64,000 nt of DNA from NCBI GenBank assembly GCA_017409465.1, contig JAFQSQ010000006.1:1-64000 (forward strand), read 5' to 3'. Within the stretch, counting starts at the first letter, position 1; each line of letters starts with the position of its first letter. This DNA is from Akkermansia sp. Its GTDB lineage: Bacteria > Verrucomicrobiota > Verrucomicrobiia > Verrucomicrobiales > Akkermansiaceae. Shown one piece after another: positions 5,449-36,187 of the stretch. The notes below the pieces were generated by a model. That model did no database searches. It saw only the letters and a program-made list of their open reading frames with translations, and had not been told where the DNA came from. The translations under genes and the position numbers were made by a program.

Positions 5449-5459
5449 AGGGGTGAGTG

Positions 5460-5480
5460 TATCGCATTCCTAATGCGATA
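5460..5480. promoter_or_regulatory. Palindromic operator candidate P1
   Basis: TATCGCATT-CCT-AATGCGATA, a perfect 9-3-9 palindrome, 12 bases before the start codon of the 3988-5448 gene on the minus strand. Its half-site matches P2, P3 and P4. Confidence 0.6.
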
Positions 5481-5612
5481 GCAAGTCTTTTCACCCCGAA
5501 ATACTGCTGGTCAGCCCATTGCGCATTGGGTACGTACGATATCTTTCAGCGAACATTGCTCGTTATAAGGAAACCTTCCGATTGCGTTCAATGAACAATC
5601 TGTAATCCTGCT

Positions 5613-5631
5613 ATCGCATTTGAAATGCGAT
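5613..5631. promoter_or_regulatory. Palindromic operator candidate P2
   Basis: ATCGCATTT-G-AAATGCGAT, perfect 9-1-9 palindrome about 152 bases (centre to centre) from P1. It is the best copy of the motif shared with the 35.9-36.1 kb region. Confidence 0.6.
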
Positions 5632-5745
5632 GACGTATATATCATTGCCCTTGCTGAAATAAGTTTTTTTGTCAGCCTCTGAGTGAGGGTGAAAACCTGA
5701 TGCTCACCATCTCAGCTGCTGTGAAAAAAAGGTGCGAGATGGGCG

Positions 5746-14393: not shown

Positions 14394-14426
14394 TTGACTT
14401 CCTGCGCCGGATGCTGTAACTATAAA
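14394..14426 (+). promoter_or_regulatory. Possible promoter of the autotransporter gene
   Basis: TTGACT at 14394-14399. The best -10 by sequence is TATAAA at 14421-14426, but the 21-base spacer is long; TAACTA at 14417 gives 17 bases but a poor match. The call is tentative. Confidence 0.35.
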
Positions 14427-14489
14427 GGGTCTCGTAGTAACGTCATCGAGATCTGTCTCTGTATATACAAGATTTTCCTATCTAATACC

Positions 14490-17400
14490 ATGAAATTACA
14501 TCTCCCCGGCAAACTTCGTGCAGCGCTCCTGGCGTGCTACGCCATCAGCGCTTCGCTTGTAACTACCGTTTCCTCCGGTTCCTTTATCGGAGGTGCGTTT
14601 GTGGCCACCGCGGCCGCGATTGCTGCCTCGCAACAGGCTACGGCTGCCACCACTATCCTCTATACCGGTGGTGTGATTGAGAACTTCAACTACGGTACCG
14701 TCATTTCTGACCCCGAAATCGGCGATATTTCCTTCAATAAGGGAGATAATATCACGTTTACGGGCGATACGTCTCTGGCTCTGGCCGGTAATGTCGAGGG
14801 CGGTATCTTCTCCATTGCCGAGAATACCGTGCTGGATCTCAGCAGCAACGGGTATCGCCTCGATGCCGCTTTTGAGCTGCGTGACGGTGTGTTGCGCCTC
14901 AGCAACGAGGCTCTGGCTGAGACTGCTGAGGTGTATCGTTCCAATACCGGCAGGGTAGAGCTTGCATGGGAGAGCACCTCTGCCAATCTGGTGAAGCAGC
15001 TGGCCAACTTCTCCGGCGTGCTGGATATCAACGGCGCAGCCTATGAAATCAGCGGTGAGGAAAATAATTATGCTCTGGTGACGCTTCATGGTGAAGACGC
15101 TACGCTGATGACGCAGGAGGCCACGTATACGCGCCCGCTGGTTTCCGTCGGGGACACCACCATTGATACCGGAGAGTTCTCTTCCGTCCATGTCGGCGCT
15201 GTTACCGGGTTCGGTTCCATCACCAAGCTGGGGGAGGGTACCTGGACTCTCAGGGCTAACCACGCCTACCATTACGGTGACATCATCGTGAAGGAAGGCA
15301 TACTCCGCTGGGGTGTCGAGACGGATGATGCAAACGAGGCCCCCGCTGCTGTCAATAAGCTCTCTTTTGCCAACATCATCGTCGAGGAAGGTGCCATGTT
15401 TGTCGATAGCCACCTGGGACGTGATATGGGGACGACCACCTCTATCACGCTCAAGAATAGCACGCTTCGTGCTCTGTCTACGGCAATCGTCGGGTTTGCG
15501 CCTGCAATCGAGGATGTCATGGCCAATACCTACAAGGCCTTGTATGTGCAGGGTGCCGGTGATCTGACCACGGATAACGCTTCCGGCCGCCGTTTCCACC
15601 TTCTCTCTTCCCTGAATACGGATGCGCATGTGGAAGGGGCGGCCCCCGATGCTACGACCCTGACGATTAATCACGGTACGCAGTATACCTATACGATTTT
15701 CGACCGCATCGAGAACTATGCCGGGGACATCGTGGTGCCCACCTCCCGTAACAACCTGGACTATGCGTTCTACGTCAACGAGATTCATCAGGACGCAGAT
15801 TACGATCTGACCATTACGACGAACAATATCCCCACCTCGGCATTCGGTATCGTCAAGACCGGTGAGGGCTCGGCAACTATCGCCGGTGCTGTCAGCGCCG
15901 AAGACGAAATCGCAGTGAAGGAGGGTATGCTTGCTATTCAAGGCAAGGTGACAGCAGAGCAAATTCATGTCAGTGGCGGCGTGCTGGAGACCCAGACGAA
16001 TCCTGCGTTGGACGCAAGTGAGGCAGTCGTCGGTACGGTGAAGGTCAGCGGCGGTCAGTATGTCATCGGTGACCGTACGCTGGAGTACGCTGTGGATGAT
16101 CTCCTCGAGGTCACCGGCGGTGAGCTTCTCGTATCCAATGAAGTGACAACGGTCAATGCCCGACGCGATGTGAAAATCAAGGGTGGTACTGTCACGGTGA
16201 ACGGTATTCTGACGGCCGGTAATGTCGAAATCTCTGCCGATGCTGATACGACCTTCACCGTCAAGGGTGCGATGACCACGAAGTCGCTCTCCAAGCGCGG
16301 GGCGGCCGAGTTCTATTTCTCCGATGATACCGAGGCTGCCAATCTGCTGTCGGTGACGGATAACCTGACGATGAACTACGGCGGTACGGAGGCCTCGTTC
16401 AACGGCGGTGATTTCAGCAAGCTTTCCATCAAGGACGGTATTGTTCTGAGCTACTATTCCACGGCTGACGGCTCTGCTCCGAATGTCATCAGGATTCCCT
16501 ATCAGAAGGGTGCAGGCGAGCGTGATGTCGAGTATCTCTTCGCTGATGTATTCGATGTGACGGCGGCGGATCTCTACAAGGGTATCAACCTGGGTATCGA
16601 GAGCGACCGCTCGGGCAGTGCGGCTTCTCGTGTCAACCATCTCTATGCCGCTACCCTCGGTGTCAAGGGAGTGGATTATATCATCGAGGAGCGCAACGGC
16701 TACTACTACCTCAAGACGCTCAATCCGGATACGGTAGCCACGACAAACTGGGATATCAACTGGGGTACCGTCGAGGTGTCTTCCGCTCCCGAGACGGTGC
16801 GCCAGTGGAGCACCGGTTCCATTGATAACACGAGCCTCTGGGAAGACCTGTATCATGAGGCCGACGGGTATTTCATCGCGGCCGAGATTGTGGGTACCAG
16901 CGAAAAGGGCTCTTCTGTCTACGGTGGTGCATACGCTTCTGCTCCCATGGATCCTGAGGGTGACGACATTCAGCGCGATATCTGGCTGAAGGCTACCGGC
17001 GGCGACTTTATCCTCATTGCCGGCGGCAGCATGTGTGCTCCCACGGCGAATGCCGGCTGGAGCCTCTCCGGCGATACGCACATCTTCGTGGGCAGCGAGG
17101 TGAACTCGGTCGGCACGGTGCTGGGTGGTAACTTCCTGGATGGTTTTGCCCCCACCTGGGTGGGTGATGGCTTTATCACCATCGATACGGACAAGCTGAC
17201 CGGCTCCGTGGCCGGCAGCGGTTACTGCGCCGTGACCCACGAGGGCGACAGTACGATATACGTATACAAGTCACTGAAGACCAACACGCAAACGGAGGTG
17301 CTGGATTATACGATGGGCGATACGGAGGATGGCGTGTTCGAGCCGATTAACAGCAACACGATTGCGGCCGGCATGATTGCTACCTCGGCCTACTGGATTG

Positions 17401-20400
17401 GTGATGGTAAGGTGGTGATTGATCTCAAGAATGATAAGACCACCAACCGCATGACCAAGTCGATTGTCGGTGGCAGCTTCACGCCTAACTCGGCTTCCAT
17501 CGGTACCGGCGACACAGATCTGCTGCAGCACGTGGGTAATAACCGGGTGGTGCTGACCAACCTCTGCGAGGGTGATGAGCGCCTGTTCACGAACTACATT
17601 GTCGGCGGTGACGTGCTGATCAACGCCGGCAGTACGGCTATGGAGGGGGATACTTATGTGGAATTCAGCCACCTGGGTACCTACACCATTATCGGCAGCA
17701 AGACCTACAGCGAGGATAATGTCTTCGTGACCGCCGGTCACATGGGCCTCAATATCAGCCCGCTGGCCGGTCCTTACACCACGCAGAACCGCTATACGCT
17801 CAACGGTAATACCCACCTCTCTGTGATGGATGCCGAAAATGCCGTCTTCAACGTGACGATGGTGGCCGGTCATGCGGTCTCCCGAGATGTGAGCTGGGAT
17901 GGTGCTACTGTTATCGTTGCTACCAATGAGTTCGAGCGTCAGTGGGTGGGTACCATCAGCGGCGATACCTACGTCGATATCGACAGCGGTACCTACCGCG
18001 GTATGATTGTCGGCGGTCACTACTATGAGGACTTCATCCACGACTCCGCTCCCGCGAATCCCGGTCAGGTGCCGCCGCATCCGGCACAGGGTACCGAACT
18101 GGATACGCTGACCGTCACCGGTACGTCCCACATCACCCTGACCGGCGGTACCTATCGCAATACCATCCTGGGTGCTTCGTACTACGACGGCTGGGATGAT
18201 GTGAACATGATGCACGGGGCGGTTGAAATCAACGCCGCCAACAGTGAGTTGGTCGGTACCAACAACGACTATGGCTATGCCGTTGTCGGCGGTTACTATA
18301 TCGATGAGTACTTCCACGAGGAGGATGTGGATCAGCCCTACCAGAGTACCAACCCGCACGGGCCTCGTACGTCTGCCACGGTGGGCGATATCCACCTGAC
18401 CTTTGCCAACAATACGACCGATGGTATCATCCTGGGTGGTTCGCATATCCTGCGTGCGCAGTCCGGCGGAGACGTCCGTCAGGGTAAGATTACGCTTGAC
18501 CTGCTCAGTGGTACCTTCAATGGCAATATCTATGCCGCCGGTTGTCAGATGTCCGCCGTTGAGCTCCTCACCGAGAGTACGACGGTTCGCATAGCAGACG
18601 CGGTTGAGTTCGGTAAGGACGTGACGGTTTCCGGTGGCTATATGGGCAGTGGTACTTCCTCTGTGCATGGTGATGCTACCCTCGAGTTCGTGAGTGCCTC
18701 CAAATACGAGAATCTGGGGGAGACGAACTTTATCTTCTTCGATGTAATCAAGGTGACGGAGAAGGAAGGTCACGTGGTGCTGCCGCACAATGCCACCCTG
18801 CTGGGTGACTATGTGACGCAGCGCGGCGCCGGTACGGTCGAGCTGTCTGTTCACAATGACCTCGATATGTATACGGTGGCAGAGGGTACGCTCAAGCTGG
18901 CGGCCAACAGCGGCAACAACAGCGAGGGTACAAAGATTATCCAGCTGAATCTCTGCAAGGGTGCGACCCTGGATATGTCTGCCGGTAACTGCGGTATCAA
19001 CGGTACTCTCGTGGTGGAGGGTGGCTCGTCCATCGTCGCCTCTGCCGGTAATGCCCCCACTGCCCTTGAGCGCCTTATCTGGGATGACAGTGAGCTGGTC
19101 ATGCTGACGCTCAATTCTGTGCCGAATACGGCAGAATCCTACGTAGTGGAGCTCTTCTCCGGTATCTCCAAGGCGGATATCATCGGTATCGATATGCGTG
19201 ACCTCGAGGAGCTTGGCTACGGTGTGCGCGCCTCTCAGTACATCTCCAGCAATGTTGACCTGACCAACACCTACCTCTTGCTGCAGGGCGATACGCTGGT
19301 GCTTTCCCGTGCTCCGCGTCGTTCCATCTACTGGGAATATGAGGGCGGCGGCAGCGGCTACTGGATTGCTGAGGATGCCTGGTCCAAGACGGATGAGGGT
19401 ACTCCTAATACGGTGTTCAACAACGAGCCCGGTTCCGATAATGTCGTGTTCTCCAACTATGGAGCGGACAATGGTGCCGTGGCCTACATTTCCGTCGGCG
19501 AGGAGGTCATGCCCTATGATATCTACGTGCAGAACGGTAACTACGAATTCATCGCTTCCAGCCCGGAAGCCGTCATTACCCCCTATGGCAGTATCATCCT
19601 TTCTGATGGTGCTTCTGCCGTCTTTGCCGACACGGTCAAGCTCAATACCAGCGCGGAGACGACACTGATTGCTGTGCAGGATGAAGCCAGCTATCTCGAG
19701 GTGAACAACGATATCAGCATCTATCAGCTGCAGAACCAGGGTCGTGTTCGCGTGGTGGGTAATCTGGCCATGACCAACGGTACCAATGCCGGTGGCGTGC
19801 TCGAGGTAACGGAAGACCTGACCGTGGGCGGCAGCTCCTCCTTCACTGAGCTGACAGTTAAAGGTGCCGTCAAGGGGAATGCTGACTATACTCTGGCCGT
19901 GGACGGCAAGAGCAGCATCGGCTCGATTGATGGCGGTGTTGTTTCCGTGGCCAAGGGTGGTGAGCTCATCATCAACCCCGAAGGCGATTCTGAGACAACG
20001 ACGCTGAAGGCTCTGCAGGGCGCCGGCTCGCTGAATACGCAGAACGACCTCGTGCTGACCGATGCCAGCAAGATTGGTAACCTGGATGTGCAGTCGCTGG
20101 ACCTCGGCAGCACGCTGGATGTCAGCGGTAACATCCTTGTCAGGGAGGATATGGCCGTGGCTGACTCGGTGAATGTGACTGGCACGCTTTCGAGCGGTTC
20201 CATCACCTACAAGAACCTCATCCTGAAGAGCAATTATGCCATGATTGACGTCGAGGGGAATGTGTACTCCTCCTCCGATTCCGGGCAGATTCAGATGAAT
20301 GTCGATACTTCTCTGATTGCCACCAAGATTCTGAGCAATGGGCAGGAGTACTACCTGCTGAAGTGCGATGAGGGTGGCCTGGACGGTCAGGTGGTGTTCG

Positions 20401-21683
20401 ATGTGAAGGAGGGTGAGGATCCCACCATCAAGTACGCCAGCAATGACCGCTACGACTATTCCGTCTACTCCGTATCGGACGGCGTTGTGCTGAAGGCTGA
20501 CCTGACTTTCCCGGATCTCTTCGAGAACTACGTGGCTGAGACGCCCAATGGAATGGCCGGTGGTAAGCTTCTTGATGAGCTCTACATCAATTCGACCATT
20601 CTGGAGAAGTATCCCAATGGTGATCTGGCTCTGACGATGGAGGCAATCAACCAGCAGCTCCTGGTGAATAACAGCAAGGCCGGTCTGGATGAGCTCTTCG
20701 CGGCTGTTGCAGGTTCATCCATTCCTTCCATGGGTATGGCCTTTACCGATGATATCAATCGTCAGCTCAAGGCTGTTCGCAACCGTACGACAACCATGGG
20801 TGTGGATCAGAGTGCTGTGAATGAGGATATGCCCTATTTCAATGCCTGGATTAATGCCGAAGGCGGCAGCCAGCGCCTGGATCAGGACAGCACCGCTTCC
20901 GGCTATGAGCTGAACAACTGGGGCGGCACGGTCGGTTTCGATGTTGACTTCTCGCCGCGCATGACCGCCGGTCTTGCCATTTCGGCCATGTATGGTGACT
21001 ACACTGCCGAATCTCCGGATCGTGCAGAGGGCGATATGGATACTCAGTATGTGACGGCCTTTGCCCGCTATGGCTATCGTTCCTGGATTCATACCTTCGT
21101 AGTCAGCTATGGCCGCATGGATGCTACGCTTGAGCGTACGGTTTCCCACGCCTATGGTAACTACACGACTAAGGGTGAGACGGAAGGCAGCGGCTTTGGC
21201 CTCATGTACGAGGTCGGCTATGTTGCCGCGCTCAATGAGTCGGGTTCTGCCTGCATCCAGCCTGTCGTGAACTTCACTCTGGCCAAGAGCACCATCGATG
21301 GCTACACGGAAGAGAACAGCGATGCCGCTCTGACAGTGGGTGATATCGAGATGACCTCCTTCACGGTGGGTGCCGGTGCTCGTATACAGGCAGTCATCGG
21401 TGAGAGTCTCTACAACCGCGCTTCCATCTTCGAATGCCGTGCTCTGGCCAAGTTCTATGCCGGTGATCGCCAGGGTGAGGCTGAGGTAGGCTTCGCGGCT
21501 GCCGATATGGGGCGTGCTGATGTGGTGAGCGCTGAGATGGGTGCCGTGGGTATCGAACTCGGTGCCGGTGTAGTGGTTCCGCTGGGCGCTCAGCACCACA
21601 GCATCTTCGCTGATGTCTCCGCTGAGATTAACTCCGGTTATACGGGTATCAACGGTACTGTTGGCTATCGTATCAACTTCTGA
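14490..21683 (+). CDS. Giant autotransporter (type V secretion), outer-membrane barrel protein
   Basis: 2397 residues from the ATG at 14490; the longer frame from TTG 14394 starts inside the promoter region. Extended signal sequence MKLHLPGKLRAALLACYA plus a second hydrophobic stretch to about residue 55. The passenger (about 60-2090) is rich in Gly, Thr, Asp and Val with repeated short beta strands of the pattern typical of parallel beta-helices (for example KTGEGSATIAGAVSAED, KLGEGTWTL). The last 290 residues form an autotransporter beta-barrel (AWINAEGGSQRLDQDS, GGTVGFDVDFSPRMTAGLAI) ending in an aromatic (GYRINF), the outer-membrane insertion signal. The passenger probably sits on the cell surface, perhaps in adhesion; its ligand is unknown. 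It is followed by a strong terminator, so it is transcribed alone. Confidence 0.9.
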   Translation: MKLHLPGKLRAALLACYAISASLVTTVSSGSFIGGAFVATAAAIAASQQATAATTILYTGGVIENFNYGTVISDPEIGDISFNKGDNITFTGDTSLALAGNVEGGIFSIAENTVLDLSSNGYRLDAAFELRDGVLRLSNEALAETAEVYRSNTGRVELAWESTSANLVKQLANFSGVLDINGAAYEISGEENNYALVTLHGEDATLMTQEATYTRPLVSVGDTTIDTGEFSSVHVGAVTGFGSITKLGEGTWTLRANHAYHYGDIIVKEGILRWGVETDDANEAPAAVNKLSFANIIVEEGAMFVDSHLGRDMGTTTSITLKNSTLRALSTAIVGFAPAIEDVMANTYKALYVQGAGDLTTDNASGRRFHLLSSLNTDAHVEGAAPDATTLTINHGTQYTYTIFDRIENYAGDIVVPTSRNNLDYAFYVNEIHQDADYDLTITTNNIPTSAFGIVKTGEGSATIAGAVSAEDEIAVKEGMLAIQGKVTAEQIHVSGGVLETQTNPALDASEAVVGTVKVSGGQYVIGDRTLEYAVDDLLEVTGGELLVSNEVTTVNARRDVKIKGGTVTVNGILTAGNVEISADADTTFTVKGAMTTKSLSKRGAAEFYFSDDTEAANLLSVTDNLTMNYGGTEASFNGGDFSKLSIKDGIVLSYYSTADGSAPNVIRIPYQKGAGERDVEYLFADVFDVTAADLYKGINLGIESDRSGSAASRVNHLYAATLGVKGVDYIIEERNGYYYLKTLNPDTVATTNWDINWGTVEVSSAPETVRQWSTGSIDNTSLWEDLYHEADGYFIAAEIVGTSEKGSSVYGGAYASAPMDPEGDDIQRDIWLKATGGDFILIAGGSMCAPTANAGWSLSGDTHIFVGSEVNSVGTVLGGNFLDGFAPTWVGDGFITIDTDKLTGSVAGSGYCAVTHEGDSTIYVYKSLKTNTQTEVLDYTMGDTEDGVFEPINSNTIAAGMIATSAYWIGDGKVVIDLKNDKTTNRMTKSIVGGSFTPNSASIGTGDTDLLQHVGNNRVVLTNLCEGDERLFTNYIVGGDVLINAGSTAMEGDTYVEFSHLGTYTIIGSKTYSEDNVFVTAGHMGLNISPLAGPYTTQNRYTLNGNTHLSVMDAENAVFNVTMVAGHAVSRDVSWDGATVIVATNEFERQWVGTISGDTYVDIDSGTYRGMIVGGHYYEDFIHDSAPANPGQVPPHPAQGTELDTLTVTGTSHITLTGGTYRNTILGASYYDGWDDVNMMHGAVEINAANSELVGTNNDYGYAVVGGYYIDEYFHEEDVDQPYQSTNPHGPRTSATVGDIHLTFANNTTDGIILGGSHILRAQSGGDVRQGKITLDLLSGTFNGNIYAAGCQMSAVELLTESTTVRIADAVEFGKDVTVSGGYMGSGTSSVHGDATLEFVSASKYENLGETNFIFFDVIKVTEKEGHVVLPHNATLLGDYVTQRGAGTVELSVHNDLDMYTVAEGTLKLAANSGNNSEGTKIIQLNLCKGATLDMSAGNCGINGTLVVEGGSSIVASAGNAPTALERLIWDDSELVMLTLNSVPNTAESYVVELFSGISKADIIGIDMRDLEELGYGVRASQYISSNVDLTNTYLLLQGDTLVLSRAPRRSIYWEYEGGGSGYWIAEDAWSKTDEGTPNTVFNNEPGSDNVVFSNYGADNGAVAYISVGEEVMPYDIYVQNGNYEFIASSPEAVITPYGSIILSDGASAVFADTVKLNTSAETTLIAVQDEASYLEVNNDISIYQLQNQGRVRVVGNLAMTNGTNAGGVLEVTEDLTVGGSSSFTELTVKGAVKGNADYTLAVDGKSSIGSIDGGVVSVAKGGELIINPEGDSETTTLKALQGAGSLNTQNDLVLTDASKIGNLDVQSLDLGSTLDVSGNILVREDMAVADSVNVTGTLSSGSITYKNLILKSNYAMIDVEGNVYSSSDSGQIQMNVDTSLIATKILSNGQEYYLLKCDEGGLDGQVVFDVKEGEDPTIKYASNDRYDYSVYSVSDGVVLKADLTFPDLFENYVAETPNGMAGGKLLDELYINSTILEKYPNGDLALTMEAINQQLLVNNSKAGLDELFAAVAGSSIPSMGMAFTDDINRQLKAVRNRTTTMGVDQSAVNEDMPYFNAWINAEGGSQRLDQDSTASGYELNNWGGTVGFDVDFSPRMTAGLAISAMYGDYTAESPDRAEGDMDTQYVTAFARYGYRSWIHTFVVSYGRMDATLERTVSHAYGNYTTKGETEGSGFGLMYEVGYVAALNESGSACIQPVVNFTLAKSTIDGYTEENSDAALTVGDIEMTSFTVGAGARIQAVIGESLYNRASIFECRALAKFYAGDRQGEAEVGFAAADMGRADVVSAEMGAVGIELGAGVVVPLGAQHHSIFADVSAEINSGYTGINGTVGYRINF

Positions 21684-27712: not shown

Positions 27713-29818
27713 TCAGTCAGGAATTTTTTTCAGCCACTGTCTGGCGGTCTCATTTCCCTTGTCGGCAGCTTTTCGTAACCACTTCTTCGCCTCTTGCCGG
27801 TCGCGCTTTACCCCCTCGCCGTTGTAGTAACATACACCCAGGCAGGCCTGTGCAGCAGCATCCCCCTGCTCCGCGGCCGGGCGGAACCACTTCACCGCCT
27901 CCTGTCGGTCGCGCTTTACCCCCTCGCCGTGGTAGTAACATATACCCAGGTTGCTCTGAGCCGCAGCATTCCCCTGCTCCGCGGCCAGGCGGAACCACTT
28001 CACCGCCTCCTTCCAGTCGCGTCTCTCGTAGTACCATGCACCCAGGTTGTTCTGAGCCGCAGCATTCCCCTGCTCCGCGGCCGGGCGATACCACTTCACC
28101 GCCTCCTCAGCATCTTTCTCCACACCCTCGCCTCTGGCATAGCACAAGGCCAGGCTGTACTGCGCCGGGGCATTCCCCTGCTCTGCGGCCGCGCGATACC
28201 ACTTCACTGCCTCCGCGGCATCTTTCGGAACGCCATATCCCTTGGCATAGCACGCGCCCAGGTTGGTCTGCGCCTGGGCATCTCCCTGCTCCGCTGCCGC
28301 GTGATACCACTTCACCGCCTCCGTTAAGTCTTTCGCCACGCCAGCACCGAACTCATAGCACCAGCCCAGGTTACACTGCGCCTGGGCATTCCCCTGCTCT
28401 GCGGCCGCGCGATACCACTTCACCGCCTCCTCAGCATCTTTCTCCACGCCGTTGCCATTGGCATAGCACACGCCCAGAAAATACTGAGCCCCCGCATTGC
28501 CCTGAGCCGCAGCCCTCTGCCACAGCTCAAAAGCTCGACGTTGATCTACCGACACACCACCCAATCCTTTATCATAATAGACCCCCAGATTATGCAAGGC
28601 TCCGGAATGGTTCTGCTCTGCCGCAAGATGATACCACCCGGCGGCCTCTATATCATCCTCCGGCACGCCGTGTCCAAAATCATAACAGCAGCCCAATCGG
28701 CACTGCCCATCAGCATGCCCCTGCTCCGCTGCCGCGCGGTACCACTTCACCGCTTCCGTTAAGTCCCTCGCCACACCCGCTCCGGACTCATAGCACACAC
28801 CCAGCAGCACTTGAGCCTCGGCATAGCCCTGCTCTGCAGGCCGCCGCAGCAGCTTGACCGTTTTGCCGAAGTCGCGCTTATCCAGATACTCCTTTGCCTG
28901 CCGGATCTGCTCTTCTGCCTCCGCGCGGCGACGTTCTTTCGCATCGTCAGCCAACCATTGTTTCGCAGCGTCATTCCCCTGCGCGGCGGCCAGGCCATAC
29001 CACTTTGCCGCCTCGGCGGTATCTTTCGCCACGCCCTCGCCCCTCGCATAGCACGCACCCAGCAGGCACTGAGCCTCGGCATAGCCCTGCTCTGCAGGCC
29101 GCCGCAGCAGCTCGACCGCTTTGCCGAAGTCACGCTTATCCAGACACGCCTTTGCCTGCCGGATCTGTTCCTCCGTCTCCGCGCGGCGACGCGCTTCCGC
29201 ATAATCAGCCAGCCATTGTTTCGCCGTTTCATTCCCCTGCGCGGCGGCCAGGCCATACCACTTCTCTGCCTGCTGCGGGTCTTTATCCATACCAAATCCC
29301 TCAGCGCAGTATTGCCCCAGCAGCAGCTGTGCCTCCGTCAGCCCTTTCTCCGCCGCAGTCCAGATGTACTTTACCGCCTCGCGACTATCTTTCGGCACGC
29401 CGTTGCCATTGGCATAGCAGAGCCCCAGTCGGTAATGCGCCTCGGGGGCTCCCTGTTCCACCGCCGCGCGATACCACTGCACCGCCTCCACCGCATCCCG
29501 CGCTGCCCCCTCGCCCTGCTCCAGGCAGTGCCCCAGCAGCAGCTGTGCAGGGGTGTAGCCCGCCTCAGCCGCGCGGCGCAGCAGCTCCAGAGCCCGCTCC
29601 GGTTCCTTCTCGCGCCCCTCACCCACCAGCAGCTGCCGCCCGAGAGAATATTCCTCCTCCTCCGAGGCAAACAGCAGCCCTGCCGCCTCGCGACCGCTCT
29701 TCGTGCTCAGAGTCATCCCCAACCCACCGAGCAGCAGCCCCGCAAGCCCTATTCCACATCCGGTGAGCACCATTCTTTTCTTCCCGCCCCGTCGCTGTTC
29801 CGTCGTTTGTGTTTCCAT
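27713..29818 (-). CDS. Membrane-anchored Sel1-repeat protein (701 aa)
   Basis: A membrane helix at about 17-37 (MVLTGCGIGLAGLLLGGLGM) anchors a long array of 36-residue Sel1 (TPR-like) repeats of the form AEQGNAxAQxxLGxCYxxGxGV.KD..EAVKWYRxA. Twice an 86-residue module is inserted with a charged helix (RRRAETEEQIRQAK and RRRAEAEEQIRQAK), repeated in the DNA at exactly 258 bp. Such alpha-solenoids bind other proteins or peptides. The topology suggests a periplasmic or extracytoplasmic scaffold. It follows the 858-residue paralogue by 22 bases. Recent repeat expansion is evident. Confidence 0.88.
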   Translation of the reverse strand: METQTTEQRRGGKKRMVLTGCGIGLAGLLLGGLGMTLSTKSGREAAGLLFASEEEEYSLGRQLLVGEGREKEPERALELLRRAAEAGYTPAQLLLGHCLEQGEGAARDAVEAVQWYRAAVEQGAPEAHYRLGLCYANGNGVPKDSREAVKYIWTAAEKGLTEAQLLLGQYCAEGFGMDKDPQQAEKWYGLAAAQGNETAKQWLADYAEARRRAETEEQIRQAKACLDKRDFGKAVELLRRPAEQGYAEAQCLLGACYARGEGVAKDTAEAAKWYGLAAAQGNDAAKQWLADDAKERRRAEAEEQIRQAKEYLDKRDFGKTVKLLRRPAEQGYAEAQVLLGVCYESGAGVARDLTEAVKWYRAAAEQGHADGQCRLGCCYDFGHGVPEDDIEAAGWYHLAAEQNHSGALHNLGVYYDKGLGGVSVDQRRAFELWQRAAAQGNAGAQYFLGVCYANGNGVEKDAEEAVKWYRAAAEQGNAQAQCNLGWCYEFGAGVAKDLTEAVKWYHAAAEQGDAQAQTNLGACYAKGYGVPKDAAEAVKWYRAAAEQGNAPAQYSLALCYARGEGVEKDAEEAVKWYRPAAEQGNAAAQNNLGAWYYERRDWKEAVKWFRLAAEQGNAAAQSNLGICYYHGEGVKRDRQEAVKWFRPAAEQGDAAAQACLGVCYYNGEGVKRDRQEAKKWLRKAADKGNETARQWLKKIPD

Positions 29819-29840
29819 GAATTCTCTTTCTTAGGGTGTC

Positions 29841-32417
29841 TCAATAATATTGTTTCAATATCCTTTTAGCATTCTCATCCCCCCCGTCTGCTGCTTTGCG
29901 AAACCACTTCTTCGCCTCCTGTCGGTCACGCTTCACCCCCTCGCCGTTGTAGTAGCACGCACCCAGGTTATGCTGAGCCTCGACAATTCCCTGCTCCGCA
30001 GCTGCGCGATACCACTTCACCGCCTCCTCAGCATCTTTCGCCACGCCATCGCCCATGTCATAGCACACGCCCAGGTTGAACTGCGCCCGGTCATGCCCCT
30101 GCTCCGCGGCCTGCCGATACCACTTCACTGCCTCGGCATCATCCTCCGGCACGCCATCACCCATGCTATAGCAAAAGCCCAAGCGGAACTGTGCCTCAGC
30201 ATTCCCCTGCTCTGCGGCCAGGCGATACCACTTCACTGCCTCCGCTGCATCTTTCGGCACGCCATCGCCCACGGAGTAACTCATGCCCAATAGGAGCTGT
30301 GCCTTGGCATGCCCCTGCTCTGCGGCCTGCCGATACCACTTCACTGCCTCGGCATCATCCTCCGGCACGCCATCACCCATGCTATAGCAAAAGCCCAAGC
30401 GGAACTGTGCCTCAGCATTCACCTGCTCTGCGGCCAGGCGATACCACTTCACCGCCTCCGCGGCATCTTTCGGCACGCCCTCGCCCACAGAGTAACTCAT
30501 GCCCAAAAGGAGCTGCGCCTCGGCTTGCCCCTGCTCCGCGGCCTGCCGATACCACTTCACAGCCTCAGCATCATCCTCCGGCACGCCCTCGCCATTATCA
30601 TAACACAAGCCCAAGACGCACTGCGCCTGGACATGCCCCTGCTCCGTGGCCAAGCGGTACCATTTCACAGCCTCGGCATCATCCTCCGCCACGCCCTCGC
30701 CGTCAGCATAGCACACGCCCAGGTTGTACTGCGCCTCGGCATGCCCCTGCTCTGCTGCCGCGCGATACCACTTCACAGCTTCCACAGCATCTTTCGCCAC
30801 GCCATCGCCGTTAACATAGCACGCGCCCAGGCTACACTGCGCATCGGCATCCCCTTGCTCCGCTGCCGCGCGATACCACTTCACAGCCTCCACAGCATCT
30901 TTCGGCACGCCATCTCCCTTGGCATAACACACGCCCAGGTTGTTCTGCGCCTCGGCATGCCCCTGCTCTGCAGCCGCGCGAAACCACTTCACCGCCTCCG
31001 CAACATCTTTCGCCACGCCATCGCCGTTAGCATAGCACACGCCCAAGTTACACTGCGCCTCGGCATGCCCTTGCTCCGCTGCCGCGCGATACCACTTCGC
31101 CGCCTCGGTATCATCCTCCGGCACGCCATCGCCTTTGTCATAACACGAGCCCAGGTTGTACTGCGCCCGGGCATAGCCCTGCTCCGCTGCCGCGCGATAC
31201 CACTTCACAGCTTCCACAGCATCTTTCGCCACGCCATCGCCTTTGTCATAACACGAGCCCAGGTTGTACTGCGCCTGGTCATGCCCCTGCTCTGCTGCCG
31301 CGCGATACCACTTCGCCGCCTCGGTATCATCCTCCGGCACGCCATATCCATCGGCATAGCACGCGCCCAAAATATACTGTGCCATAGCATTCCCCTGCTC
31401 TGCAGCCGCGCGAAACCACTTCACTGCCTCCGCATCATCCTCCGGCATGCCATATCCATTAGCATAACACACGCCCATGTTGTACTGCGCCTCAGCATCC
31501 CCCTGCTCTGCGGCCAAGCGACACCACTTCACCGCCTCCACGGCATCTTTCGCCACGCCGTTGCCATTAGCATAGCACACGCCCATGTTGTACTGCGCCT
31601 TGGCATGCCCCTGCTCTGCGGCCGCGCGAAACCACTTCACCGCCTCCGCAGCATCCTCCGGCACGCCCGCCCCCTTGGCATAATGCTCGCCCAGCTTGTA
31701 CTGTGCATCGGCGTGCCCCAGCTCGGCTGCCAGTCGATACCACTTTACCGCCTTAGCATCATCCTTCTGTGCGACCGCGCCATTAAGATAGAGCATACTC
31801 AGTCGGGACTTCATTCCGGCAGGATCGCGCTCCGCTGCTGCGCGGAACCACTTCATCGCCTCGGCATCATCTTCCGGCACTACCCTGCCCTCAGCATAGA
31901 ACAAGCCCAGGAAGAACTGCGCATCGGCATCCCCCAGCTCTGCTGCCGTGCGATACCACTTCACCGCTTCGGCTTCATCCTCCGGCACGCCATCGCCTTT
32001 ATCATAGCAGAAGCCCAGAAGATACTGCGCCCGGGCATAGCCCTGCTCCGCTGCCGCGCGATACCACTTCACCGCCTCCGCAGCATCTTGCCCCACCCCT
32101 GTACCGGCGCTGAAACACTGCCCCAGCAGCTGCTGCGCCGGAGCATAGCCCGCCTCTGCCGCCTTCCTCAGCAGCTCCACGGCCTTTGACGGATTCGCCG
32201 CTGCACCCTCCCCGCTCAGCAATTGCTGCGCCTCGGCATACTGCGCTTCGGCAGAAGAAAACCAGGAGCATACCTCCTGTCGTATATCACCGGAAAGAGC
32301 CAATACACCGCCGGCTCCCAGGCACACACTGCCCACCGCCACCCCGGCCACCGCGAGGATGAATGGCGCCCTGCTCTTTCGAGCCGCTGACTGCTGTTGA
32401 TTATCTGCTTGTTGCAT
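29841..32417 (-). CDS. Membrane-anchored Sel1-repeat protein (858 aa)
   Basis: N-terminal basic segment, a membrane helix at about 19-42 (FILAVAGVAVGSVCLGAGGV), then about 22 Sel1 repeats of 36 residues (108 bp) to the C-terminus. Many repeats are nearly identical; bases 30129-30338 and 30345-30554 repeat at exactly 216 bp (two Sel1 units), a recent tandem duplication. Probably an extracytoplasmic protein-binding solenoid. It is in tandem with the 701-aa paralogue and downstream of a five-gene lipoprotein operon that contains two more Sel1 proteins. Confidence 0.88.
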   Translation of the reverse strand: MQQADNQQQSAARKSRAPFILAVAGVAVGSVCLGAGGVLALSGDIRQEVCSWFSSAEAQYAEAQQLLSGEGAAANPSKAVELLRKAAEAGYAPAQQLLGQCFSAGTGVGQDAAEAVKWYRAAAEQGYARAQYLLGFCYDKGDGVPEDEAEAVKWYRTAAELGDADAQFFLGLFYAEGRVVPEDDAEAMKWFRAAAERDPAGMKSRLSMLYLNGAVAQKDDAKAVKWYRLAAELGHADAQYKLGEHYAKGAGVPEDAAEAVKWFRAAAEQGHAKAQYNMGVCYANGNGVAKDAVEAVKWCRLAAEQGDAEAQYNMGVCYANGYGMPEDDAEAVKWFRAAAEQGNAMAQYILGACYADGYGVPEDDTEAAKWYRAAAEQGHDQAQYNLGSCYDKGDGVAKDAVEAVKWYRAAAEQGYARAQYNLGSCYDKGDGVPEDDTEAAKWYRAAAEQGHAEAQCNLGVCYANGDGVAKDVAEAVKWFRAAAEQGHAEAQNNLGVCYAKGDGVPKDAVEAVKWYRAAAEQGDADAQCSLGACYVNGDGVAKDAVEAVKWYRAAAEQGHAEAQYNLGVCYADGEGVAEDDAEAVKWYRLATEQGHVQAQCVLGLCYDNGEGVPEDDAEAVKWYRQAAEQGQAEAQLLLGMSYSVGEGVPKDAAEAVKWYRLAAEQVNAEAQFRLGFCYSMGDGVPEDDAEAVKWYRQAAEQGHAKAQLLLGMSYSVGDGVPKDAAEAVKWYRLAAEQGNAEAQFRLGFCYSMGDGVPEDDAEAVKWYRQAAEQGHDRAQFNLGVCYDMGDGVAKDAEEAVKWYRAAAEQGIVEAQHNLGACYYNGEGVKRDRQEAKKWFRKAADGGDENAKRILKQYY
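30129..30554. repeat. 216-bp tandem duplication inside the Sel1 gene
   Basis: Two copies of a two-unit Sel1 block, offset exactly 216 bases (2 x 108), with few differences over more than 180 bases. Such repeats will recombine readily and change protein length. Confidence 0.85.
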
Positions 32418-32693
32418 ATGTAGAATGGCTTGTTAGTGTTGGTAAAGAGTTTGGAGAAACATCTCTTATTATGTGTACTGAACGTTTTTCATTCAGCATC
32501 TCCTGAATAAAACACCGACACCCCCGTGTCAACAGGGTACACAGGGGCATCGGGCGATTGATATCCACCGTTTATCTGATTACTGCACATGAGTTGAAAG
32601 ATAAAGGAGAAAATGATTTTTTACGATGAATCAACCGGGAGAAGAAGCTGCATCGGCAGAACCATGTCACGGAATTTCACCACGACGACGCTA

Positions 32694-33428
32694 CTAGTTG
32701 CCATATTGAGCTTTATGCCTGTCAATCAAATCCTGTTTGATGGACATTTCCTGCTCATAATCGGCAGAATAGTTGTTCGGGGCAGATGAGTTAATAGCAC
32801 GATCAAGGGAACCAGTTGCTCGTGCATGCTCTACCCCATCGTTAAACGCCGACAGCAAAGCCACTACAACCATCAACGAACTCTGTGTCACAGTAATAGG
32901 AAAGTCCACAAGCATCCAGTCGAAGACTGCAGCCGTCCACAGCCACCCCGAGTTGGGGCTATTATAATCATAGAGAGCTCGCATCGCCCCCGACATGTTC
33001 ACAATGGGTTTACGGGGATAGGTGCGAACCAAATCCGGATTCTCCGCCATCTTCACCTTACCATTCAAATCGAAGTAATCCGTACTCTCCCCCGTCAGGT
33101 AACGAGCGAAATCCGCAGGCACCTCCACCATGACTGAGCCGCTCTTTCGCGTAGCCTTGGTAGAGGTACTGCGGGAGTGGTCTCTACTGTCGAATGCACT
33201 ATACTGCAACACAACCGGGGAGTCAAAACGAACATGCGGAATCTCCAGATAATAATTGACTCCGTTTGTGTAGACAGCCTGTCCGATCTTCAATTCGGAA
33301 GTATCCATCAGAGCCGTATGAGAAGCGGCATCAGTGATGAATCCGGCAGAGTTGAAATAGCAGCTGTTGAGAGCAACGCTGCTCAACGCTGCCATAGCAG
33401 CTAACGTTGTAATTGGTTTTGGAATCAT
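32694..33428 (-). CDS. Lipoprotein of the 'SCYFNS' family, short form
   Basis: 244 residues. Signal peptide with lipobox ending at C23 (SVALNSCYFNSAG). It is paralogous to the N-terminal part of the next gene upstream: shared CYFNS, DAASH, NYYLEIPHVRFDS / NYYIYLRRYRYDT, and WTAAVFDWMLVDFPITV / YTAGVFNWLCVDLPITC near the end. No known domain recognised. Last gene of a five-lipoprotein operon; the stop of the upstream gene is 14 bases away. Confidence 0.8.
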   Translation of the reverse strand: MIPKPITTLAAMAALSSVALNSCYFNSAGFITDAASHTALMDTSELKIGQAVYTNGVNYYLEIPHVRFDSPVVLQYSAFDSRDHSRSTSTKATRKSGSVMVEVPADFARYLTGESTDYFDLNGKVKMAENPDLVRTYPRKPIVNMSGAMRALYDYNSPNSGWLWTAAVFDWMLVDFPITVTQSSLMVVVALLSAFNDGVEHARATGSLDRAINSSAPNNYSADYEQEMSIKQDLIDRHKAQYGN

Positions 33429-33442
33429 TTTCTGTAAATAAA

Positions 33443-34435
33443 TTAACGATTAGTAACACAGCCCATAGAACGCATCACCCGTGCGCACTCATAATGCCCT
33501 TGGCGAATAGCTACATCCAAGGGAGTTTCCCCGGAGGCCGCGAGCAGATTCTTATCTATACCGGCCTCAATCAAGTATGCACAGCACGCTGTCTGTCCTT
33601 TGTTAGCAGCCCAATGTAAAGCATTGGCAGAGAAGCGATCCAAATCTCTTCCCGGTTTCGATACGGCATTAATATTCGCCCCATGCTTCACCAATAGCTT
33701 ACAGATTTCAAGATTTCCGGTGTTAGCCGCATACATCAGCGGGGTCCAACCTTGTGTATCCGTCAGATTCACATCCACACCTTCCTCCAGAAGACCTTTC
33801 ACCTGGTAGTAATCACCACTTTTGGCAGCATCGCGCAGGCTGTTGCCGGCAATGAGGTCGGAGGGGGTCTGACCGGTGAGCAGCACGAAGGGAATCGCGA
33901 GTGAGTTCTCTACACAGGTGATGGGCAGGTCCACGCAGAGCCAGTTGAACACACCCGCCGTATACAGCCACGGAGCTGCGGAGCTGCGGTAGCGGAACTC
34001 GGTCAGGTCATCATCCGGCACCGCGCGAACGGCGGTATAGGTGGTCGAGCATTTCTCTTTAATCGACTCATCAGCCTGCTCAACGGTACTGACCGGTATC
34101 TTATCACTGATTCCCCGCATATAATCGGCCATCTCAGCCGAAATCTTCACAAATTGCTCCTCGCCGGAGTTGCTCAGACGCTTCACTCCGTCAGAATCGC
34201 GCATACCACCGGCTGAGTACTGGGTAATCACCTTGGTATCATAGCGGTAGCGACGGAGATAGATGTAGTAGTTGCTGCCATCGAACCAGATAGTCTGCCC
34301 CGCCTCGACTAGCCCGGTCATGACAGCAGCGTTGTGAGAAGCGGCGTCGAAGATATGCCCCGTGGAGTTGAAGTAGCAGCTATTCAATGCCAGCATCAAA
34401 GCTGCTGATAATACAATACGTTTCATATTTGTCAT
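33443..34435 (-). CDS. Lipoprotein of the 'SCYFNS' family fused to ankyrin repeats
   Basis: 330 residues; ATG at 34426 (MKRIVLSAALMLALNSC) is an alternative start. Lipobox LNSC with C20. Residues 20-190 match the 32694-33428 protein. Residues about 192-325 hold four ankyrin repeats (GWTPLMYAANTGNLEICKLL, NALHWAANKGQTACCAYLI, GETPLDVAIRQGHYECARVM). So the same lipoprotein body exists with and without a protein-binding module, side by side, an arrangement that suggests a duplication followed by domain gain. Middle of the lipoprotein operon. Confidence 0.85.
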   Translation of the reverse strand: MTNMKRIVLSAALMLALNSCYFNSTGHIFDAASHNAAVMTGLVEAGQTIWFDGSNYYIYLRRYRYDTKVITQYSAGGMRDSDGVKRLSNSGEEQFVKISAEMADYMRGISDKIPVSTVEQADESIKEKCSTTYTAVRAVPDDDLTEFRYRSSAAPWLYTAGVFNWLCVDLPITCVENSLAIPFVLLTGQTPSDLIAGNSLRDAAKSGDYYQVKGLLEEGVDVNLTDTQGWTPLMYAANTGNLEICKLLVKHGANINAVSKPGRDLDRFSANALHWAANKGQTACCAYLIEAGIDKNLLAASGETPLDVAIRQGHYECARVMRSMGCVTNR

Positions 34436-34451
34436 TAATCAGTTATATCTA

Positions 34452-34922
34452 TCAGAAGACATATTTTCTAAAGAATTCGTCACGGAAGGCCTCATTCTCC
34501 TCTTTTTCGCTCAACACGGATTCACCGCGCCCCTCCAGAACCATGACGGCCGCCTTGTTCCCTCTTCTGGCCGCACGTCGGAAATATCGGGTGGCTTTCT
34601 CCTGATTCATCAGTCGCCCGGTGCCGTTTGCGTAGGCCACACCAAGCTGGAAATAGGCATTGCTATGCCCCTTCTTAGCGGCTAATTCCCAGGCATCGGC
34701 GGCCTTCCATGCATCTTTCGGAAAACCATTCCAGCCCCACTTATAATAAAGTCCTACCGAATAAAGAGCCTCAATATCACCGGCAAGTGCCTTCTCATAC
34801 AAAGCTATGGCTTGAGGATGAGTAACCGAACTCGGCGGTTGAGGATCGAGCATGGGAGCGCAGGCGCTCATCATGAACAAAGCCGACAACATCAAGAAGA
34901 ATGAACGATATGTCCTTTTCAT
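34452..34922 (-). CDS. Small Sel1-repeat lipoprotein
   Basis: 156 residues. Lipobox MSAC (C21) then PMLDPQPPSSVTHPQA, and about three Sel1-like repeats (ALYSVGLYYKWGWNGFPKD, AYFQLGVAYANGTGRLMN, RYFRRAARRGNKAAVMVL). Paralogous to the 34948-35433 protein, which has the same Pro-rich stretch after the Cys. Sixteen bases separate it from the ankyrin lipoprotein gene downstream. Confidence 0.83.
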   Translation of the reverse strand: MKRTYRSFFLMLSALFMMSACAPMLDPQPPSSVTHPQAIALYEKALAGDIEALYSVGLYYKWGWNGFPKDAWKAADAWELAAKKGHSNAYFQLGVAYANGTGRLMNQEKATRYFRRAARRGNKAAVMVLEGRGESVLSEKEENEAFRDEFFRKYVF

Positions 34923-34947
34923 AATGTGAAACTATTGCATCATTGCT

Positions 34948-35433
34948 TTACTGAGCGAAGGGATTCAGCTGCATGGCTTTATTCCAGTCATTGATTACGC
35001 GCGTCCTGCGAGCCTCCTCTTCGGCACGAATGCGAGCCTCCACTCGCTTGACACCTTGCGCTGCGTCACGGGATCCACCTGCACTGGCTCGGCGATAATA
35101 ATCGAGCGCTTTGGAATTACTCTGCAAACGCCCTCGGCCCGACTCATAAAAGAGAGCAATCATCGCCTGAGCCTGAGTATGACCGAGCTTTGCAGCCGTC
35201 TCAAACGCATTGGCGGCCATACGTTCATCTTTCGGGAATCCCGAAGTCCCCATCAAATAATACTCCCCGATTTTCATCAGTGCTGCGGTATCGCCACCGA
35301 TGGCGTTCCGGTAGGTCTGCAACGCCCCGGCATTGGTGACCGATGGGGGTGGAGTGGGTGAAAGAGTCTGTGAACAGGATACCAGGCAGACCGGCACCAT
35401 CGCAGCAACCGCAAGAAAATGAACCAGCTTCAT
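34948..35433 (-). CDS. Small Sel1-repeat lipoprotein
   Basis: 161 residues from the ATG at 35433 (MKLVHFLAVAAMVPVCLVSC); the frame is open to 35517 but the extra 28 residues are not signal-peptide-like. Lipobox LVSC, then SQTLSPTPPPSVTNAGALQT, Sel1-like repeats (ALMKIGEYYLMGTSGFPKD, AQAMIALFYESGRGRLQ) and a charged helical tail (EARIRAEEEARRTRV). Paralogue of the next gene. Second gene of the lipoprotein operon. Confidence 0.83.
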   Translation of the reverse strand: MKLVHFLAVAAMVPVCLVSCSQTLSPTPPPSVTNAGALQTYRNAIGGDTAALMKIGEYYLMGTSGFPKDERMAANAFETAAKLGHTQAQAMIALFYESGRGRLQSNSKALDYYRRASAGGSRDAAQGVKRVEARIRAEEEARRTRVINDWNKAMQLNPFAQ

Positions 35434-35527
35434 ATGCATCAAAAAAAGGAAGTTAACCCTGCAATGCTGCTGTATCACCAAAGGCGACACAGCAGCATCT
35501 GACGAGTTACTGTTCAAATATATGTCT

Positions 35528-35896
35528 TTACAGATAGCGAGCCTTGCTCAGCGTCAGCCGCACCTGATCGGAGTTGAAGTAATTACGCTGTACAATGCGA
35601 CGCAGAGCCTTGTTGTAGGCCTTCTTGGCGCTCTCGGGCACATCCATCTTGATAGCCTGAGCCGCCTCGATAGCCGTCAGCAACGTATCCATATCATCAG
35701 CCAGGTCTTCAGCCTGTTCCGCTGATTCAACGCTATCAACGCAACCGGTAATCTCATTGACGGCGAGATCGATAGTCTTACCAATCATGCACTCTTCCAT
35801 ATTGGAGGAAAGAGCACACTCCAGATAAGAGCACGAGGAAAAGCTGCACAGCGCAACGACCGGCAGCACAAGCTGTTTGAGAAATGTAGTTTTCAT
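35528..35896 (-). CDS. Small lipoprotein, unknown function; first gene of the island operon
   Basis: 122 residues. Lipobox FSSC (C22) after MKTTFLKQLVLPVVALCSF. The rest is helical, with extra cysteines (ECALSSNMEECMIG, TGCVDS) and ends RLTLSKARYL. No family recognised. Two copies of the ATCGCATTT-type palindrome lie 36-55 and 170-190 bases upstream of its ATG, so this is the promoter-proximal gene of the operon. Confidence 0.75.
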   Translation of the reverse strand: MKTTFLKQLVLPVVALCSFSSCSYLECALSSNMEECMIGKTIDLAVNEITGCVDSVESAEQAEDLADDMDTLLTAIEAAQAIKMDVPESAKKAYNKALRRIVQRNYFNSDQVRLTLSKARYL

Positions 35897-35932
35897 AGCT
35901 AAGTTGTTGTGTTAGGCAACGTCTTCATGTAT

Positions 35933-35951
35933 ACAGCATTTCAAATGCGAT
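35933..35951. promoter_or_regulatory. Palindromic operator candidate P3
   Basis: ACAGCATTT-C-AAATGCGAT; the right arm is identical to P2 and the left arm matches 7 of 9. It lies 36 bases upstream of the first lipoprotein gene, the same relative place as P1. Confidence 0.6.
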
Positions 35952-36065
35952 ATACGGGAGTCAACTAAGAGTGAAAGTATTATGCTGACATTCGTTTGCA
36001 CGACGTCCCTTTGAAACTCCCTTTTTTCGGATGCTAACTCTTTATTTTTTCCGTTTTTCCTTGAT

Positions 36066-36084
36066 ATCGCATTTGAAATACGAT
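36066..36084. promoter_or_regulatory. Palindromic operator candidate P4
   Basis: ATCGCATTT-G-AAATACGAT, one mismatch from P2, 133 bases (centre to centre) from P3. It lies between the lipoprotein operon and the divergent dus gene (ATG 103 bases away) and could affect either. Confidence 0.6.
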
Positions 36085-36187
36085 ATACACGAGTTCCCAA
36101 CGTTGTACCCCATCGTGATGCTAACACACACGTGCGATTTTTGCCCCGCGGCTTGCCAGCGGAGGGAGACTGTGGTATGATGCGGGC

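What the first reader, a model, noticed from the sequence alone, without database searches (positions are those of the whole stretch)
27713..35896. A Sel1/ankyrin lipoprotein island: seven envelope proteins, no known pathway
Seven consecutive minus-strand genes encode five lipoproteins (two Sel1, one ankyrin, one shorter paralogue of the ankyrin one, one of no family) and two membrane-anchored Sel1 solenoids of 701 and 858 residues. All should face outside the cytoplasm and four or more carry protein-binding repeats. The five lipoprotein genes have 10-25-base gaps or little more and look like one operon. No enzyme is among them, so the island looks like a protein-protein interaction system of the envelope, perhaps surface display, host binding or periplasmic scaffolding. 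I know of no described system with this make-up.
Basis: partly seen in the sequence, partly recalled or inferred. Interest (0 to 1): 0.68.

Follow-up and report, generated by a model that had tools for sequence, protein, structure and literature searches.

The report
Switchable Sel1/ankyrin lipoprotein operon in Akkermansia
A gut Akkermansia species carries a run of envelope proteins built from protein-binding repeats and an undescribed lipoprotein domain, and the DNA in front of the run looks like a flip switch that this species also places in front of many other surface-protein genes.

Summary
The seven genes are real: five lipoproteins in a tight run (two Sel1, one with ankyrin repeats, its repeat-less paralogue, one small helical protein), then, 276 bp later, two membrane-anchored Sel1 solenoids. 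The genome is an Akkermansia MAG. The two 'CYFNS' proteins define a lipoprotein domain of about 170 residues, matched in 30 of 76 Akkermansia species and in no other genus searched. Its model is confident (pLDDT 92) without a convincing PDB match. It carries swappable C-termini: ankyrin, ankyrin plus Sel1, zinc motifs, His/Cys/Asp tails. Sel1 or ankyrin genes lie near 17 of 39 CYFNS loci (14% of control windows), and a Sel1-Sel1-CYFNS lipoprotein triplet recurs in three species: linkage is real but not obligatory. New here: the operon is preceded by two inverted 27-bp near-palindromes. Such pairs recur in this genome and relatives, mostly before exported genes (several PEP-CTERM), with central spacers matched in inverted orientation (26 of 33 pairs; shuffles average 5.5). 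This fits a site-specific-recombination (inverton) switch whose motif differs from the published Akkermansia one. Inversion was not observed; what the proteins bind is unknown.

The parts
35528..35896 (-). Small lipoprotein, 122 aa, helical bundle (model pLDDT 89); relatives in 9 other Akkermansia species, 2-4 of them seen in other small-lipoprotein clusters
34948..35439 (-). Sel1 lipoprotein, 163 aa from the ATG at 35439
   Evidence: Sel1 37.7 bits, cut-off 30.7; lipobox VSC
34452..34922 (-). Sel1 lipoprotein, 156 aa, paralogue of the preceding one
   Evidence: Sel1 32.3 bits; 36% identity to its neighbour
33443..34435 (-). CYFNS lipoprotein with C-terminal ankyrin repeats, 330 aa
   Evidence: Ank_2 E 8e-32; CYFNS domain model
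32694..33428 (-). CYFNS lipoprotein without repeats, 244 aa
   Evidence: 35% identity to the ankyrin paralogue; no Pfam family
32513..32534 (-). Terminator-like hairpin between the lipoprotein run and the large Sel1 genes
   Evidence: consensus scan only
29841..32417 (-). 858-aa Sel1 solenoid with one N-terminal membrane segment
   Evidence: 22 Sel1 stretches; 108-bp tandem array
27713..29818 (-). 701-aa Sel1 solenoid with one N-terminal membrane segment
   Evidence: 15 Sel1 stretches
35929..35955 (+). Proximal palindromic site, centre C
36062..36088 (-). Distal palindromic site, centre G on + strand, so inverted relative to the proximal one (22 of 27 bases identical when inverted)
35956..36061 (.). 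106-bp segment between the sites, proposed invertible promoter segment
   Evidence: inferred from the paired sites; no promoter was identified

Best explanation
The five lipoprotein genes form a phase-variable operon of envelope-anchored interaction proteins. Shown: lipoprotein signals, repeat domains, a genus-restricted CYFNS domain with exchangeable C-terminal modules, recurrent linkage to Sel1 and ankyrin genes, and a pair of inverted, spacer-matched palindromic sites directly upstream, of a kind that recurs next to exported (several PEP-CTERM) protein genes. Inferred: the lipid anchors hold the proteins on the outer membrane; the CYFNS domain is a constant membrane-proximal base whose C-terminal ankyrin, Sel1 or metal-binding tip does the binding; a tyrosine recombinase flips the 106-bp segment between the sites, and with it the operon's promoter, so that the set is switched on or off as other surface-protein genes are. 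The two large Sel1 solenoids are a separate, neighbouring unit that may scaffold partners in the periplasm. The ligands (mucin, host protein, other bacteria, own envelope) are unknown.
For: Domains and lipoboxes. CYFNS restricted to Akkermansia, variable tails. Confident domain model. Linkage 17/39 vs 68/474 control windows; recurrent arrangements in several species. Sites: 14 in the genome, 0 in control; spacer identity in inverted orientation in 26 of 33 pairs, shuffle mean 5.5, maximum 14; interiors unrelated between loci, so not one transposon family; 23 of 26 pairs have an exported-type gene start nearby vs 32 of 68 control intervals; PEP-CTERM matches in five of five such proteins tested, three of them above the Pfam cut-off. 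Invertons control capsule in A. muciniphila (PMC13343947).
Against: No reads were available, so neither orientation switching nor transcription was seen. No promoter was identified between the sites. The recombinase was not identified; eight PF00589 matches exist in the genome, none linked to the island. The two sites here differ at 5 of 27 positions and may be decayed. Many CYFNS genes have no Sel1 or ankyrin neighbour. In the one clear orthologous pair of loci the segment is replaced, not inverted.
Confidence: 0.5

Rival explanations
1. Fixed (non-switching) envelope scaffold: the Sel1 and ankyrin lipoproteins act as assembly or regulatory factors of the envelope, as AlgK or ExoR do, and the palindromes are ordinary paired operators bound by a dimeric regulator of exported proteins.
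For: NCBIfam matches of the Sel1 proteins to AlgK and ExoR models, though these reflect shared repeats. The sites are palindromic, as operators are.
Against: An operator has no reason to share the same spacer, inverted, within a pair while spacers differ between pairs. All cut-offs for AlgK and ExoR are missed.
Confidence: 0.22
2. Array of orphan immunity lipoproteins that neutralise toxins delivered by neighbouring bacteria; paralogous tandem lipoproteins with ankyrin or Sel1 domains bind and block incoming effectors.
For: Tandem paralogues with shared base and varied tips. That ankyrin and Sel1 proteins occur as immunity proteins is my own knowledge, not tested here.
Against: No toxin or effector family was found among the genes of the window that were scanned, and a literature search with these terms gave nothing. 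The shared switch with PEP-CTERM genes fits surface display better.
Confidence: 0.1
3. Accretion: unrelated repeat lipoproteins that happen to lie together in a variable region, with no joint function.
For: The flank of dus differs in the relatives examined. Sel1 and ankyrin genes are abundant in the genus. Many CYFNS genes are solitary.
Against: Tandem Sel1-Sel1-CYFNS triplet in three species and fused forms; short gaps on one strand.
Confidence: 0.15

Closest known systems
Akkermansia invertons, such as the cps1 capsule switch (motif CGGATT..AATCCG; PMC13343947, PMC11892184)
   Same: Paired inverted repeats with palindromic core upstream of surface genes, in the same genus
   Different: Core here reads CGCATT..AATGCG, 16 of 76 species; inversion not observed; drives lipoprotein and PEP-CTERM genes rather than capsule genes
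Sel1-like repeat proteins (PF08238), e.g. AlgK, ExoR, MotX
   Same: Same repeat family; several known members act outside the cytoplasm (own knowledge)
   Different: No equivalog cut-off is met except that the 858-aa protein exceeds the score of the MerG model through repeat number, not through full-length homology
DUF1375 lipoproteins YceK/YidQ (PF07119)
   Same: Lipoproteins; a short motif, D-[hydrophobic]-P-[ITSMVF]-[TS], followed by a hydrophobic stretch
   Different: Only about 17 residues align, hhalign probability 4%; all Pfam scores of CYFNS proteins are below the cut-off
Ankyrin proteins of Akkermansia (PMC10540074)
   Same: Genus-wide ankyrin content, proposed to mediate surface interaction
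   Different: The passages read do not describe CYFNS proteins, Sel1 linkage or switching

Membership tests
Inverton (invertible promoter) | Pair of short inverted repeats flanking a short intergenic segment | tested here: met
   27-bp sites, 22 of 27 identical when inverted, 106 bp apart
Inverton (invertible promoter) | Recombination sites of a pair share the crossover spacer | tested here: met
   This pair: TTCAA in both when inverted; 26 of 33 pairs overall
Inverton (invertible promoter) | Promoter inside the segment | tested here: inconclusive
   sigma-70 consensus scan lists none inside 35956-36061; Akkermansia promoters may differ
Inverton (invertible promoter) | Both orientations present in a population | not testable with these tools
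   no reads available
Inverton (invertible promoter) | Dedicated recombinase | tested here: inconclusive
   eight PF00589 matches in the genome, none shown to act here
Published A. muciniphila inverton group | Motif CGGATT..AATCCG | tested here: not met
   sites read CGCATT..AATGCG
DUF1375 / YceK-YidQ | Score above Pfam gathering cut-off 20.3 | tested here: not met
   no CYFNS member reaches it; best E 0.027 for 4 of 38 members
Sel1 repeat proteins | PF08238 above 30.7 bits | tested here: met
   four of the seven proteins
Ankyrin repeat proteins | Ank models above cut-off | tested here: met
   33443-34435 only
Toxin-immunity lipoprotein array | Cognate toxin gene adjacent | tested here: inconclusive
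   no toxin family among the window genes scanned; orphan arrays can lack one
Known protein fold for the CYFNS domain | Significant structural match in PDB | tested here: inconclusive
   model pLDDT 92; best Foldseek E 0.076 with probability 0.07; VIA-align Z at most 2.6; absence of a match does not prove a new fold

The most novel reading that the evidence does not exclude
A clade of animal-gut Akkermansia uses an undescribed family of spacer-matched recombination sites to flip promoters of many surface genes, both PEP-CTERM proteins and an operon of CYFNS/Sel1/ankyrin lipoproteins; the CYFNS domain is a new lipid-anchored base on which binding tips are exchanged in evolution.
Probability: 0.4. 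Interest if true: 0.7.

Novelty: new variant of a known kind. Interest (0 to 1): 0.52.

Why it matters
Akkermansia is a mucus-dwelling commensal studied for host health, and its surface proteins are little known outside A. muciniphila. A shared flip switch would mean that single cells show different surface sets, which affects how host interaction, immune recognition and phage sensitivity should be measured. The CYFNS domain gives an entry point, a genus-restricted lipoprotein base with exchangeable tips, and the site motif makes the candidate switchable genes listable by sequence alone.

Tried and rejected
DUF1375 membership: suggested by a short D-x-P motif, tested with Pfam and hhalign against E. 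coli YceK/YidQ; rejected as membership, kept as a lead. No DUF1375 match in 57 genomes drawn from the class. PDB match for CYFNS by fold or sequence: none convincing. Anti-phage defence: PADLOC hits are repeat cross-matches. Transposon explanation of the palindromes: segments between sites are not homologous except one tandem pair. Empty-site comparison at dus: uninformative, the flank is not syntenic in the genus. Collection scan with P0002 alone found no relatives; the profile did. Direct sign of inversion between orthologous loci G000:C11 and G023:C40: the interior is replaced, not inverted. Pfam/NCBIfam searches failed on a wrong reading frame and were repeated.

Full report
What is there. 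Seven minus-strand genes lie between a GcvT-like gene and dus. Going downstream from dus: a 122-aa helical lipoprotein, two paralogous Sel1 lipoproteins, a CYFNS lipoprotein with ankyrin repeats, a CYFNS lipoprotein without them, then a 276-bp gap with a terminator-like hairpin, and two membrane-anchored Sel1 solenoids of 858 and 701 aa. The five lipoprotein genes are the likely operon; the large Sel1 genes are probably a second unit.

Where it comes from. The window is contig 56 of a 2.03-Mb draft genome, 77% complete. The named relatives found with the CYFNS profile are all Akkermansia or Akkermansiaceae MAGs, many from ruminant and rabbit gut. Within the genus, 30 of 76 species representatives have CYFNS matches at E 0.001 or better, a few of them short and weak; none of the single-contig genomes had one. 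The collection scan is limited by its back-translated patterns, so absence elsewhere is not proven.

The CYFNS domain. It is about 170 residues after the lipid-anchored Cys. Invariant or nearly invariant positions include C1, Y37, Y38, R43, S132, D150, P152 and N158. AlphaFold2 with 38 rows gives pLDDT 92 and pTM 0.78: mostly strands, then one long C-terminal helix that carries the VDLPIT.VEN motif. No PDB match is convincing. The tails differ between members: ankyrin, ankyrin with a weak Sel1 match, CxxCxGxG motifs (sub-threshold zinc-finger matches), His/Cys/Asp-rich, Ser-rich. This constant-base, variable-tip layout is the main structural argument for an interaction role.

Is the neighbourhood conserved? 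Partly. Within 4 kb, 17 of 39 CYFNS loci have a Sel1 or ankyrin gene, against 68 of 474 overlapping control windows from the same genus (Fisher p 2.9e-5, or 0.003 with a conservative count of independent control blocks). Gene calling and repeat models in that count are my own simple ones. Two arrangements recur: Sel1 lipoprotein, Sel1 lipoprotein, CYFNS in the window, G085 (L139) and G079 (L141); and a 209-210-aa lipoprotein beside a CWFNS-type protein in L036, L042 and L158, with Sel1 genes close by. Many other CYFNS genes stand alone.

The upstream switch. The intergenic DNA has two 27-bp near-palindromes, 35929-35955 and 36062-36088, the nearer one 32 bp from the first start codon. Two matches with at most 3 mismatches occur in the window and none in shuffles. 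The genome has 14 such places and the reversed control none. Sites come in pairs. In 26 of 33 candidate pairs the central five bases are identical in inverted orientation; dealing the right-hand sites out at random gives 5.5 on average and never more than 14 in 20,000 trials. A search with free central bases shows further inverted pairs not used in that test, for instance G075:C12 30793/30938 with its own spacer, G033:C20 and G074:C55. Matching spacers within a pair that differ between loci are expected of site-specific recombination. The DNA between sites is unrelated between loci, apart from one tandem pair, so this is not one transposon family. In 23 of 26 pairs a gene for an exported-type protein starts close by, against 32 of 68 control intervals (binomial p 1.3e-5; the export heuristic is loose). 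Five such proteins tested match PEP-CTERM, three above the Pfam cut-off and two just below. Some pairs lie between two divergent exported genes (L189, L196, L224), an either/or layout. A second operon with an ankyrin lipoprotein in the same genome (L191) has the same element.

Relation to known switches. A. muciniphila capsule expression is controlled by an inverton, with motif CGGATT..AATCCG given for the genus, and Akkermansia has many invertons (PMC13343947, PMC11892184). The present sites read CGCATT..AATGCG and occur in 16 of 76 species. I read them as a variant of that known kind. Inversion, promoter position and recombinase remain unproven. Orthologous loci in G000 and G023 share 93.6% identity up to the site and differ beyond it: that fits recombination at the site, but it is replacement, not a seen inversion.

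What it does. Best reading: an on/off set of lipid-anchored binding proteins in a probably switchable surface repertoire, with the large Sel1 proteins as neighbouring periplasmic scaffolds. The binding partners are unknown. A fixed-scaffold reading, chance accretion and an immunity-array reading remain open at lower odds.

Noticed in passing
window 5457-5635: A second pair of the same sites (5461/5613) lies just upstream of an exported 486-aa protein gene (3988-5448, minus strand); its two spacers do not match, so it may be decayed.
   Followed up: partly
L193 292-452 and L217 2300-2461: Orthologous PEP-CTERM gene loci in two species are 93.6% identical over 1801 bp up to the site; the segment between sites and the far flank are unrelated, so segments seem to be exchanged between loci.
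   Followed up: partly
L212 1542-1560 and L216 1474-1492: 95% identical loci diverge about 50 bp past a single site; one species has a PEP-CTERM-like gene there that the other lacks.
   Followed up: partly
L226 1532, 2053, 4033: Several sites with one shared spacer flank twin PEP-CTERM-like genes in G023:C26, a possible multi-site shuffling locus.
   Followed up: no
window 14394-21683: 2429-aa ORF with an autotransporter beta-domain and an MKLHLP-type signal peptide.
   Followed up: no
L036 2-1591: ORF beside a CYFNS gene that begins FAFISYSRRDEKFAQRL, which reads like a TIR domain; no family search was made.
   Followed up: no
window 29841-32417: The 858-aa Sel1 protein has 22 Cys, 16 of them at one fixed repeat position (LGxC[YF]); the DNA is a 108-bp tandem array of about 20 copies and could vary in length.
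   Followed up: no
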